From: an uncultured Coriobacteriia bacterium
Lineage (GTDB): Bacteria; Actinomycetota; Coriobacteriia; Coriobacteriales; QAMH01
Reading direction: 5' to 3'
DNA length: 5,024 nucleotides
NCBI GenBank assembly: GCA_949283445.1
Contig: CASDTD010000277.1
Coordinates: forward strand, 1-5,024
The notes under the pieces are model-generated. The model searched no databases, was not told the DNA's origin, and saw nothing but the letters and a program-made list of their open reading frames with translations. A program made the position numbers and the translations under genes. Shown here in pieces: positions 2,131 through 4,559 of this stretch (positions are counted from its first letter, which is position 1; the number at the start of each line of letters is the position of its first letter).

Positions 2131-2181
2131 AACCACTAGGGGGCAGTTCTTGTAAGTGTAGGTTCAATCAGGGGAGGAACC
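2129..2181 (+). promoter_or_regulatory. tupA leader with two alternative hairpins and RBS
   Basis: TGAACC (2129-2134) is a perfect inverted match to GGTTCA (2161-2166). The stem can be drawn longer as TGAAC+CACT pairing with AGTG (2155-2158) and GTTCA, with a 3-base bulge. The same GGTTC (2161-2165) also pairs with GAACC (2177-2181), which lies between the Shine-Dalgarno GGGGAGG (2171-2177) and the ATG at 2182. The two foldings exclude each other: one leaves the ribosome site free, the other places it in an 11-base loop and pairs its last G plus the spacer. The pairings are seen in the sequence; a regulatory role is inferred. I do not recognise the molybdenum/tungsten cofactor riboswitch here, and the leader seems too short for it. 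Confidence 0.4.
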
Positions 2182-3186
2182 ATGACAAGGACACTGTTTA
2201 GGAAATGGGTTGGCCTCTTTACCGCGCTACTCGCCGTGGTCGCGCTGCTCGCCCTTGCGGGGTGCAGCTCGGGCGGTGGCAACGCCGAGGACCAATCCGC
2301 ACAGCCCGCGCAATCCACACTCAAGATTCTCTATGAAGAGGATGAGGGGCTGATCAACAACTATTCGCTTATCGCCGTCAATCCCGATGCGCCGTTCGCC
2401 GACGCCGATGGCAACGCCGTTTCCGACGTTTCCATCAACACCGAAGGCGCCAAGGCGCTTATCGACTGGATACTCGGTCCGGGCATCGACCTCATCTCCG
2501 AGTACGGTGTCGAGGAATACGGTGAGAACCTCTTCTACATCGACGAGAACGCCCCGCGTTTCGAGGGCGAGGTTCCCAAGGCAACCGACGAGACGAAAAC
2601 CATCCGCATGTCCACCACGACATCGGTCAACGATTCCGGCTTGCTCGAATACCTGCTCCCGAAGTTCGAGGAAGAGTACGGATATGACGTCGAGGTCTAT
2701 TCCGCGGGTACGGGTAATGCCATCGCCAACGCCGAGATGGGTAATGCCGACTTGATTCTCGTCCACTCCAAGAGCCAGGAAGAAGAGTTCATCGACAAGG
2801 GATTCGGCTACACGGTCAAGGGATATGACAGCCCGCGTTTGACGTTCATGTACAACTACTTCGTCATCTGCGGCCCTGAAGACGACCCGGCCGGTGTGGC
2901 TAAGGCCGCGTCCGCTTCCGATGCTTTCAAGGCCATCGCCGACGGCAAGTACAAGTTCATCTCCCGCGGCGACGAGTCCGGCACGCACACCAAGGAAATT
3001 TCGCTGTGGCCTGAAGAGCTGGGTATCACCACCGACGAGGCCAGCGTTGCCGATTACACGGACTGGTATGTGTATTCCAACGCAGGTATGGGTGCTTGTC
3101 TGACCATGGCTGCCGAAGAGGGTGCCTACATCCTCTCCGACAAGGCGACGTTCTTGGCCTTCCAGGCCAACGGCGGCCAGGCGTAA
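2182..3186 (+). CDS. tupA: Tungstate ABC transporter binding lipoprotein, circularly permuted TupA
   Basis: This is a 334-residue type II periplasmic-binding-protein-like receptor that should capture tungstate (or molybdate) outside the membrane and deliver it to TupB. It has a positive start (MTRTLFRK), a hydrophobic stretch at about 10-26 and the lipobox LAGC with Cys28, then a Gly/Ser/Gln-rich linker. The order of the rest is unusual. Residues 46-120 (LKILYEEDEG, YSLIAVNP at 61-68, EGAKALIDWI at 88-97, YGENLFYI) match what is normally the C-terminal end of TupA. A linker (about 121-139) leads into the normal start of the mature protein, STTTSVNDSGLL (144-155). Then come SAGTGNAIA (174-182), LVHS (193-196), YNYFVICGPEDDPAG (224-238), the oxyanion-site motif SRGDESGTH (261-269), AGMGACLTMA (301-310) and AYILSDKATFLAF (315-327), just before the stop. 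Each segment occurs once. The ATG follows GGGGAGG with a 4-base gap. The TupA family call is firm; tungstate over molybdate is likely from the family, not proven. Confidence 0.9.
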   Translation: MTRTLFRKWVGLFTALLAVVALLALAGCSSGGGNAEDQSAQPAQSTLKILYEEDEGLINNYSLIAVNPDAPFADADGNAVSDVSINTEGAKALIDWILGPGIDLISEYGVEEYGENLFYIDENAPRFEGEVPKATDETKTIRMSTTTSVNDSGLLEYLLPKFEEEYGYDVEVYSAGTGNAIANAEMGNADLILVHSKSQEEEFIDKGFGYTVKGYDSPRLTFMYNYFVICGPEDDPAGVAKAASASDAFKAIADGKYKFISRGDESGTHTKEISLWPEELGITTDEASVADYTDWYVYSNAGMGACLTMAAEEGAYILSDKATFLAFQANGGQA

Positions 3187-3207
3187 CGCACGGGGGAGCT
3201 CGCTTTT

Positions 3208-3894
3208 ATGTTGAGTGCCATCTCACAGGCAATCGACCTCATGCTGTCGGGTGATCCGATTCTGTTGCAGATTATTGTGGTCACCCTGCAGATGAGCGTG
3301 GCGAGCTCCCTTATTGCTCTTTGTCTGGGGGTCCCTTTCGGTGTGTTTCTTGCTACGCGCAAGTCGAAGCTGAAGACGATCCCCATCGTGTTGAACAGAA
3401 CGATGATGGGACTGCCCCCTGTTGTCTGTGGTCTGTTCTGCTATCTGATGTTTTGCGGCGTCGGGCCCTTGCGAGGGCTTGAGCTCCTCTACACCGTCCC
3501 CGGCATGGTCGTGGCGCAGGTGCTGCTCATCACGCCCGTCGTTGCCGGCAACATGGAAGCATTCGTGAACAATATTGCCGAGCCCATACGGGAAACGGCC
3601 TGCGGTTTGGGGCTTTCCCCGTTGCGCAGCATGTGGATGGTCATGTCCGAATGTCGCTATCAGGTCATCACGGTGTACTTGCTTGCGTTCGGGCGCGCTA
3701 TTGCCGAGGTGGGAGCGGTGACCATGGTCGGCGGCGCCATCGCCCACAAGACCAACGTCATGACCACGGCCATCATGATGTACACCAACCGTGGAGACTT
3801 CACGTTGGGCATCGCCCTTGGCATCATCCTGCTTTCCATGTTCCTGGTGCTCAACGTCGCTGTGGGCCTGTTCCAGATGAAGGTCAGCAAGTGA
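3208..3894 (+). CDS. tupB: Tungstate ABC transporter permease TupB
   Basis: This 228-residue integral membrane protein should form the homodimeric channel of the importer. Hydrophobic segments by eye lie at about 18-48, 58-84, 92-114, 150-176 and 197-222. The cytoplasmic coupling loop that contacts the ATPase is seen as IRETACGLGLSPLRSMW (127-143), an EAA-type loop with the conserved Gly at 135. It is followed by the family-typical FGRAIAEVGAVTMVGG (161-176). The length and pattern fit TupB/ModB-like permeases; placing it next to TupA favours TupB. The start ATG at 3208 has a good Shine-Dalgarno, GGGGGAG (3192-3198), 9 bases upstream. The gap from the tupA stop is 21 bases and holds no terminator, so the genes are cotranscribed. 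The TGA stop lies within the GTGA overlap with the next gene. The gene looks intact. Confidence 0.92.
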   Translation: MLSAISQAIDLMLSGDPILLQIIVVTLQMSVASSLIALCLGVPFGVFLATRKSKLKTIPIVLNRTMMGLPPVVCGLFCYLMFCGVGPLRGLELLYTVPGMVVAQVLLITPVVAGNMEAFVNNIAEPIRETACGLGLSPLRSMWMVMSECRYQVITVYLLAFGRAIAEVGAVTMVGGAIAHKTNVMTTAIMMYTNRGDFTLGIALGIILLSMFLVLNVAVGLFQMKVSK

Positions 3895-4559
3895 TACTCA
3901 CGGGAATGCAGAAGTCGTACGATGGCAAGCTGGTTTTGGATATCGAGCGGCACGAATTTGCTCCTAACGGCATTCACGCGGTTATCGGTGCGAACGGCTG
4001 CGGCAAGTCAACGCTCGCGAAAATACTTTCCGGCGTTATCAAGCCTGATAAAGGGGATGTCGATTTCTGCGGCGCGAACGTAGGGTTCATGCCACAGCGG
4101 TGTTATGCGTTCTACGGCAGTCTGTTACATAACGTCATGATGGGTGCCCGGCGCGACGTCGAGAAAGCCACGTCTCTGGAGCGTGCGCACCAGCTCATGG
4201 GGACGTTGGGGCTTACGGCCCTGGAGAGCAAATCTGCCAAGCGTCTTTCGGGAGGAGAGACCGCGCGCATGGCGCTTGCCCGCGTGCTCATGGGCGCGTA
4301 CGGATATCTCATCTTGGACGAGCCGACAGCGGCGCTCGATGTCAAGTCGACGCTGGCTGCCGAGCGGCTCATTGCGGAATACCGTGAAGAACATGCAGCT
4401 GGTGTCATTCTCATCACTCATTCCATCAAACAGGTGCGCCGTATAGCGGATACCGTCACGTTCATGGAAGATGGGAAAATAGTCGAAACCGGCCCCGCTC
4501 ACATGGTGTTGGGGAACACGAGCACACGGCAGCTCCAGACGTTCCTTGACTTCGCTTGA
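3891..4559 (+). CDS. tupC: Tungstate ABC transporter ATPase TupC
   Basis: This 222-residue cytoplasmic ATPase should drive the importer as a dimer bound to the TupB coupling loops. All nucleotide-binding motifs are present: Walker A GANGCGKST (33-41), Q-loop Gln69 in MPQR, ABC signature LSGGE (119-123), Walker B YLILDEP (139-145), D-loop AALD (147-150) and switch His177 in ITHS. The signature has Glu in place of the common Gln, followed by TARMALARVL, so the usual QQR stretch is altered; the Q-loop to signature part is also compact. There is no C-terminal TOBE-like regulatory domain. I chose the GTG at 3891: it overlaps the tupB stop as GTGA, has GAAGG (3879-3883) 7 bases upstream, and gives MILTGMQKSYDG, the expected first strand. 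The next ATG (3906) would remove part of that strand. The open frame upstream of 3891 is only a shadow of tupB. Confidence 0.92.
   Translation: MILTGMQKSYDGKLVLDIERHEFAPNGIHAVIGANGCGKSTLAKILSGVIKPDKGDVDFCGANVGFMPQRCYAFYGSLLHNVMMGARRDVEKATSLERAHQLMGTLGLTALESKSAKRLSGGETARMALARVLMGAYGYLILDEPTAALDVKSTLAAERLIAEYREEHAAGVILITHSIKQVRRIADTVTFMEDGKIVETGPAHMVLGNTSTRQLQTFLDFA

What the first reader, a model, noticed from the sequence alone, without database searches (positions are those of the whole stretch)
2182..3186. TupA appears to be a natural circular permutant
Known TupA-type proteins run from ATTTSTQDSGLL near the mature N-terminus, through SRGDxSGTH and YxLTDRxTYLA, to a C-terminal part with YxVIAVNP, EGAxxFIxWL and a final FGxxxFGxxLF. 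Here the last part (46-120) comes first, right after the lipobox Cys28, and the protein stops at ATFLAFQANGGQA, exactly where that part should follow. Every segment is present once, so this is reordering, not duplication or loss. The new ends lie near what should be the second crossover strand between the two lobes, so the fold could be kept while the ends move to the hinge. The order is seen directly; the family order is from knowledge; the hinge location is inference.
Basis: partly seen in the sequence, partly recalled or inferred. Interest (0 to 1): 0.88.

Follow-up and report, generated by a model that had tools for sequence, protein, structure and literature searches.

The report
Naturally circularly permuted tungstate-binding protein
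A bacterial protein that appears to capture tungstate for import has its chain cut and re-joined so that its usual tail comes first, and relatives in gut bacteria are cut at several other places too, which makes them a natural record of how proteins can move their ends.

Summary
The 334-aa lipoprotein at 2182-3186 is a TupA-type substrate-binding protein whose C-terminal piece comes first. Residues 139-328 match the solved TupA 3lr1 at 5-179, and residues 43-105 match the same chain at 181-233. Doubling the sequence raises its score against a canonical TupA model from 244 to 294 bits; 151 canonical proteins gain nothing. The eight oxyanion-site residues are kept, and tupB and tupC follow. The new ends lie in lobe B, before the second crossover.

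The order is shared by 159 of 353 retrieved homologues. Relatives show three further cut points (orders B, C, D), and two tandem dimers fit the predicted intermediate. In one bacterial order, canonical, A, B and D genes sit at the same riboswitch-tupA-tupB-tupC place. One origin is rejected for orders A, B and C, not for D. A permuted sugar-binding protein, TpMglB-2, is published; my searches found no paper on permuted TupA. The window and its nearest relatives gave no riboswitch hit. No binding was measured.

The parts
2171..2177 (+). Shine-Dalgarno-like GGGGAGG, 4 bases before the ATG
   Evidence: Sequence; function inferred.
2182..2265 (+). Signal peptide and lipobox, residues 1-28 (LAGC, Cys28)
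   Evidence: Translation; Cys28 invariant in 66 homologues.
2266..2316 (+). Low-complexity spacer, residues 29-45
   Evidence: Variable; residues 27-39 have pLDDT below 50.
2317..2394 (+). Segment a (residues 46-71): lobe-B strand plus crossover strand YSLIAVNP; normally in the C-terminal part of TupA
2425..2544 (+). Segment b (residues 82-121): helix INTEGAKALIDWILG and final YG..YG.NLF; normally the extreme C-terminus of TupA
2545..2595 (+). Linker b-to-N (residues 122-138) that joins the old C-terminus to the old N-terminus
   Evidence: 7 of 10 order-A linkers of the mixed clade score 17 bits or more (two of the seven are identical), 1 of 6 B linkers 25 bits, at most 4 of 29 D linkers above 5 bits (best 29.7), none of 4 C linkers; shuffles reach 9.9.
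2596..3021 (+). Segment N (residues 139-280): STTTS 144-148, H195, first hinge strand 220-232, R262, T268
   Evidence: binding residues from PMC5517513.
3061..3171 (+). Segment K (residues 294-330): WYVYSNAGMG, AYILSDKATFLAFQAN, with D320; end of lobe B and now the C-terminus
3208..3894 (+). tupB permease of the same operon
   Evidence: NF038017 185.6 bits (cut-off 100); TupB model NF041773 E 6.5e-39 but 134.1 bits against a cut-off of 320.
3891..4559 (+). tupC ATPase (start codon inferred); short form, without the last third of the TupC model
   Evidence: ABC_tran 1.2e-22; NF041774 matches 2-209 of 319, 90.8 bits against a cut-off of 400.

Best explanation
The gene encodes a lipid-anchored tungstate (possibly tungstate/molybdate) binding protein of a TupABC importer whose chain is circularly permuted: lobe-B strand + second crossover + C-terminal helices (a, b) come first, a 17-residue linker joins the old C-terminus to the old N-terminus, and the chain ends in lobe B. 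Shown: the order, the homology of each piece, the kept oxyanion residues and the operon. Inferred: it folds into the ordinary two-lobed trap, binds WO4(2-), closes, and docks on TupB, with the membrane tether on lobe B instead of lobe A. It most likely arose by in-frame tandem duplication and trimming from both ends. The signal peptide and promoter stayed in place, and the same process has moved the termini in relatives, giving orders A (window), B, C and D.
For: Two-piece swapped match to four solved TupA-like chains. Doubling test: +54 bits median (min 28.7) in 174 order-A proteins, -2.3 median (max -1.0) in 151 canonical. AF2 pLDDT 88.4, pTM 0.79. T145-147, S148, H195, R262, T268 and D320 align to DaG20 T9-11, S12, H59, R118, T124 and D170, and these eight residues are invariant in 66 homologues. 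tupB and tupC follow. Other orders: b-N-K-a, K-a-b-N, and K split as K-a-b-N-K. Tandem dimers N-K-a-b-N-K-a-b in one ORF: P0130 and P0236, 82% identical, on different contigs. In the order of G001 the riboswitch precedes tupA in 14 of 14 loci and tupB plus tupC follow in 13 of 14, for canonical, A, B and D alike. Canonical P0142 and order-C P0190 share an identical 26-aa signal peptide and are 77% identical once rotated. One clade rejected for A (p 4e-10), B (1.9e-4) and C (5.9e-4). The TupB tree independently puts A, B, D and canonical loci in one clade (100/99).
Against: No binding, structure or expression data. TupA equivalog NF041772 scores 144.9 against a cut-off of 400, as expected if only the collinear part aligns, but the cut-off is not met; TupB and TupC models are below cut-off too. 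No Mo/W riboswitch at gathering score in the window, nor in the ten window-type loci tested (L001, L003, L008, L012, L091, L170-L174). No leftover half-copies beside the permuted genes (one weak 64-aa hit in L240). Dimers with near-identical halves are rare: 3 of 353 proteins. Most B and D linkers do not score above shuffles, so the linker supports one junction for A but only for a few B and D. Direction of change is unresolved: no reversion is needed if canonical relatives are sister to A+B+D (78/86). Order D as one clade is not rejected (p 0.0515).
Confidence: 0.88

Rival explanations
1. The front piece came from a different binding-protein gene and was fused on, converging on the fold, as the TpMglB-2 authors considered for their protein.
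For: The front piece is not significant against single solved chains (i-E 0.18 to 200), unlike the body.
Against: The front piece itself is TupA C-terminus: 56 of 61 canonical ORFs at E<0.01, 100 shuffles reach at most 7.7 bits. Every segment is present once. Canonical/permuted pairs with identical signal peptides exist.
Confidence: 0.05
2. Domain-swapped oligomer: the front piece completes the lobe of a neighbouring molecule, so this is not a self-contained permutant.
For: Not excluded by any search; the 17-residue linker would allow it.
Against: A monomer model with high confidence through a, b and N. Order D gives a similarly confident monomer (pLDDT 89.4, pTM 0.78).
Confidence: 0.07
3. Assembly or gene-calling artefact, or a dead gene.
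For: The window is a 5-kb contig with no held genome.
Against: The 120 listed homologues share the order. It is also in genome loci L001-L014, L021, L091 and L170-L174. The frame is open and functional residues are invariant.
Confidence: 0.01
4. It is a permuted oxyanion-binding protein, but its ligand is mainly molybdate or another anion rather than tungstate.
For: The protein and its permease miss the TupA and TupB equivalog cut-offs (144.9 of 400, 134.1 of 320), and the permease also hits molybdate ModB (80.4 bits, cut-off 182.6).
Against: The TTTS, H, SRGD..GT and D residues of TupA are kept. The best solved relative, 3lr1, is named a tungstate transporter protein.
Confidence: 0.15

Closest known systems
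Canonical TupA (3lr1 Geobacter; 5my5 Desulfovibrio alaskensis, PMC5517513, passages read)
   Same: All segments, binding residues and the tupABC operon
   Different: Order N-K-a-b there and a-b-N-K here; membrane anchor moves from lobe A to lobe B (inferred)
TpMglB-2 / Tp0684, 'Cluster Bc' (PMC4990184, passages read)
   Same: A natural circular permutant of a lipoprotein substrate-binding protein, also found in Gram-positive gut bacteria
   Different: Type I sugar-binding protein with another cut; one permuted topology described in the passages seen, and the moved piece was poorly conserved (13% identity)
Permutation by duplication, e.g. DNA methyltransferases and saposin/swaposin (PMC3320104, passages read)
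   Same: Tandem in-frame duplication followed by trimming, with intermediates documented for DNA methyltransferases
   Different: Here the orders lie in one operon type, with canonical/permuted pairs that share the same signal peptide
ModA (molybdate) and WtpA
   Different: No ModA among the PDB sequence hits at E 0.01; canonical order

Membership tests
TupA tungstate-binding protein (NF041772) | Curated equivalog score of at least 400 bits | tested here: not met
   144.9 bits over profile 14-192 of 266; a collinear model cannot align the moved part.
TupA tungstate-binding protein (NF041772) | TTTS, His59, Arg118, Thr124, Asp170 oxyanion site | tested here: met
   P0001 T145-147, S148, H195, R262, T268, D320.
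TupA tungstate-binding protein (NF041772) | N-K-a-b segment order | tested here: not met
   Order is a-b-N-K.
TupA tungstate-binding protein (NF041772) | tupB and tupC next to it | tested here: met
   Permease and ATPase follow, both below the TupB/TupC equivalog cut-offs; also in relatives.
TupA tungstate-binding protein (NF041772) | Selective high-affinity tungstate binding | not testable with these tools
   Needs ITC.
PBP_like_2 (PF12849) | Gathering score 27 bits | tested here: met
   106.2 bits.
Circular permutant of a known protein | Both pieces homologous, swapped, each once, and joined by doubling | tested here: met
Circular permutant of a known protein | Same three-dimensional fold | tested here: inconclusive
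   Confident model, but sequential aligners cover only about 136-333 against TupA; no permutation-aware superposition.
TpMglB-2-type 'Cluster Bc' proteins | Type I sugar-binding fold with that permutation | tested here: not met
   Pfam and PDB sequence matches are TupA-like oxyanion proteins.

The most novel reading that the evidence does not exclude
TupA of gut Clostridia has mobile termini: the same gene, at the same riboswitch-controlled locus, has been circularly re-permuted again and again by in-frame tandem duplication and trimming behind a fixed signal peptide (at least four permuted orders and, on a 79-row tree, at least nine order changes), including reversion from a permuted order back to the canonical one.
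Probability: 0.4. Interest if true: 0.88.

Novelty: new variant of a known kind. Interest (0 to 1): 0.76.

Why it matters
Intermediates of circular permutation have been documented before (DNA methyltransferases, PMC3320104 passages). Here canonical, four permuted orders and tandem dimers coexist in one type of transport operon in related bacteria, and some pairs differ in order while sharing an identical signal peptide. This makes the permutation-by-duplication model, and the effect of moving the membrane tether between lobes of a binding protein, directly testable. It also shows why a collinear family model can miss such proteins (NF041772 scores 145 of 400), so tungstate uptake genes in gut bacteria may be under-called (inference).

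Tried and rejected
Reading the K-a-b-N-K group as an overlap intermediate with K twice was wrong: the two K pieces are complementary halves (profile about 17-37 at the front, 1-20 at the end), so it is a fourth permuted cut point (order D).

Doubling without removing signal peptide and spacer gave no gain for order A; trimming to the matched pieces did. One K-a-b-N protein gained only 0.9 bits, and partial b-N(-K) proteins gained none.

Reversion to canonical order: the simple-model tree nested 15 canonical proteins inside permuted ones (97/95/99/96). The mixture-model tree leaves that open, the AU test does not reject a permuted clade without them (p 0.069), and A+B+D against canonical is already one side of a branch (78/86). 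The TupB tree again puts canonical rows in a clade with A, B and D (100/99), apart from the window's all-A clade, and the b-N linker is alike in 7 of 10 order-A proteins of that clade (P0156 and L240 have the same linker). That favours reversion or a long-lived duplicated ancestor. I do not claim it.

Leftover half-copies beside permuted genes: none seen, apart from one weak hit. Order-C genomes: none seen among 43 and 250 genomes (only 30 loci per call could be read); C is known only from four protein clusters. G981 (L239) has a masked stretch inside tupA; I did not fill it, counted it as canonical from the parts outside, and used its TupB. P0243 (dimer of order D) has identical halves on one contig; an assembly error cannot be excluded. 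In one search one B linker (P0169) could not be cut out and was dropped. VIA-align and Foldseek are sequential; a family absent there is not excluded. Mo/W riboswitch in the window: none at gathering score. Paper searches: (listings); passages read.

Full report
WHAT IS THERE. The window holds the 3' part of a gyrase-A-like ORF (8-1978; name by eye, no search), then tupA (2182-3186), tupB (3208-3894), tupC (about 3891-4559), tRNA-Ile(gat) and tRNA-Ala(tgc), on the + strand. The TupA-like protein has a signal peptide with a lipobox Cys28, a short spacer, and then, in order, segments I call a (46-71), b (82-121), N (139-280) and K (294-330).

IS IT PERMUTED? Yes. In canonical TupA the order is N-K-a-b. 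In the phmmer search of PDB sequences the best match, 3lr1 (Geobacter TupA), takes query 139-328 at chain 5-179 and query 43-105 at chain 181-233; 3muq, 5my5 and 3kn3 show the same pattern, though the second piece alone is not significant against single chains (i-E 0.18 to 200). Residues 46-121 alone hit 56 of 61 canonical TupA ORFs at E<0.01 (best 43.6 bits; best of 100 shuffles 7.7 bits; the 61 were chosen for having a C-terminal hit). Doubling the mature sequence lifts P0001 from 244.3 to 293.7 bits against an HMM of 61 canonical proteins, and lifts the 174 order-A proteins by a median of 54 bits (min 28.7), while 151 canonical proteins change by -2.3 (max -1.0). AlphaFold2 on 66 relatives gives mean pLDDT 88.4 and pTM 0.79, with a and b well ordered.

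WHERE ARE THE NEW ENDS? Using the alignment with 5my5 and the lobe limits given in PMC5517513 (passages), the window's ends fall at about D. alaskensis residues 181-184, inside lobe B (91-200), some 16 residues before the crossover at Y201 (= Y61 here).

DOES IT STILL LOOK FUNCTIONAL? The oxyanion residues named in PMC5517513 (T9-11, S12, H59, R118, T124, D170) align to T145-147, S148, H195, R262, T268 and D320; these eight are invariant in 66 relatives. tupB and tupC follow directly. A Mo/W riboswitch (RF01055) lies upstream of tupA in 15 of 20 sources and 8 of 14, permuted and canonical alike. It was not found at gathering score in the window or in ten window-type order-A loci (L001, L003, L008, L012, L091, L170-L174); the contig of L242 begins at the gene.

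HOW WIDESPREAD? Of 5709 homologues, 120 are listed, and these have the window's order. Among the 353 proteins of three searches: a-b-N-K (order A) 159; canonical N-K-a-b 143; K-a-b-N-K 28; b-N-K-a 5 with three partial b-N(-K) hits; K-a-b-N 5 (one of them, P0233, is order D on reading); 10 others, tandem or incompletely matched. The K-a-b-N-K proteins are not duplicates: K is split in two complementary halves (order D). So the circle has been opened at b|N (canonical), K|a (A), a|b (B), N|K (C) and inside K (D). Order D also folds confidently in prediction (pLDDT 89.4, pTM 0.78), with TupA chains as best fold matches. Genome samples (they overlap): class of G001, 148 genomes, 22 with a match, one order A and one B by their match pattern; order of G001, 297 genomes, 15 matches, 14 of them TupA genes (A 1, B 1, D 6, canonical 6); one family of 43 genomes, 12 with TupA (A 2, B 3, canonical 7 including one with a masked stretch); class of G005 (Coriobacteriia by the titles of L020/L023), 246 genomes, 67 with a match, three of order A, the rest with the canonical pattern or a partial match; order of G002, 295 genomes, 33 matches, three of order A; family of G007, 250 genomes, 41 matches, two of order A among the loci read; family of G311, 40 genomes, 11 matches, seven of order D and one A.

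HOW DID IT ARISE? Permutation by duplication predicts in-frame tandem dimers (PMC3320104, passages). Two exist: P0130 (580 aa) and P0236 (572 aa), 82% identical, from different contigs, each N-K-a-b-N-K-a-b behind one signal peptide; they nest in a canonical clade. P0243 is a dimer of order D with identical halves, so an assembly error is possible. Canonical P0142 and order-C P0190 have identical 26-aa signal peptides and 77% identical mature parts once rotated; B P0123 and A P0126 likewise (identical signal peptide, 73%). So the 5' end appears to have stayed while the rest was re-cut. At the locus level, canonical, A, B and D genes of the order of G001 sit behind a riboswitch in 14 of 14 loci and before tupB-tupC in 13 of 14.

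HOW OFTEN? On a 79-row mixture-model tree (chosen from 149 clustered rows, themselves from 393) the order changes at least nine times when D and its dimer are merged, ten when not; shuffled labels need about 40. One clade is rejected for A (p 4e-10), B (1.9e-4) and C (5.9e-4); for D it is not (0.0515). A tree of the neighbouring TupB (66 rows) gives a 39-row clade made of an all-A clade (20 rows, with the window and Coriobacteriia) and a mixed clade (canonical 7, D 6, B 3, A 3; 100/99) and needs five changes. The b-to-N linker of the window's clade is alike in 7 of 10 order-A proteins of the mixed clade (17 bits or more; two of the seven identical), in 1 of 6 B and in at most 4 of 29 D linkers; shuffles reach 9.9 bits, canonical spacers 9.1; none of 4 C linkers scores. 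This suggests that the A junction formed once and that the cut then moved in some lineages, while C formed separately. For most B and D proteins the linker says nothing. Whether canonical members of the mixed clade are reversions is open.

NOVELTY. A natural permuted binding protein is known: TpMglB-2 of Treponema pallidum, a type I sugar-binding protein, with relatives in Gram-positive gut bacteria (PMC4990184, passages). Searches for permuted TupA, tungstate or type II binding proteins gave listings in which I saw no such report, and a 2025 paper on tungsten in gut microbes that surveys TupA does not use the word 'permut' in its main text (PMC11980592). The library holds open-licence papers only, so other papers are not excluded. 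The new points are a permuted tungstate-binding protein, several cut points in one type of operon, and surviving tandem dimers.

LIMITS. No wet-lab data; no coordinates for superposition; order C is seen only as protein clusters; many of the named loci are metagenome-assembled genomes (titles); and the clade tests were chosen after the first tree was seen.

Noticed in passing
L131:1405-3189 (+); P0245, P0257: A canonical TupA fused to a second binding-protein domain (PF01497 listed for P0245 and P0257; L131 similar by eye), with a Mo/W riboswitch upstream in L131 and no tupB hit in that 3.5-kb locus.
   Followed up: no
P0237, P0238, P0239, P0241, P0242, P0315: TupA proteins listed with S-layer homology domains (PF00395); P0237, P0239 and P0241 lie close to the tandem dimers P0130 and P0236 in the tree: another way to tether a TupA.
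   Followed up: no
P0214, P0240, P0316, P0320: Diverged tandem TupA dimers (two TupA-like units in one chain) outside the gut clade.
   Followed up: partly
P0123 / P0193; L249 / P0184 (by eye): Nearly identical signal peptides on mature parts of different order (P0123/P0193 identical signal peptide, mature only 52% identical), as if the 5' end were exchanged between genes.
   Followed up: partly
window 3891-4559: TupC is short (about 222 aa) and covers only 2-209 of the 319-position TupC model; no TOBE domain hit in Pfam at E 0.001.
   Followed up: no
window 2182-4559: Order-A tupABC is rare in Coriobacteriia (3 of 67 matching genomes); the window and those three form one TupB clade inside an otherwise Clostridia all-A clade, suggesting transfer from Clostridia. 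No gyrA hit in 12-13 kb around those three.
   Followed up: partly
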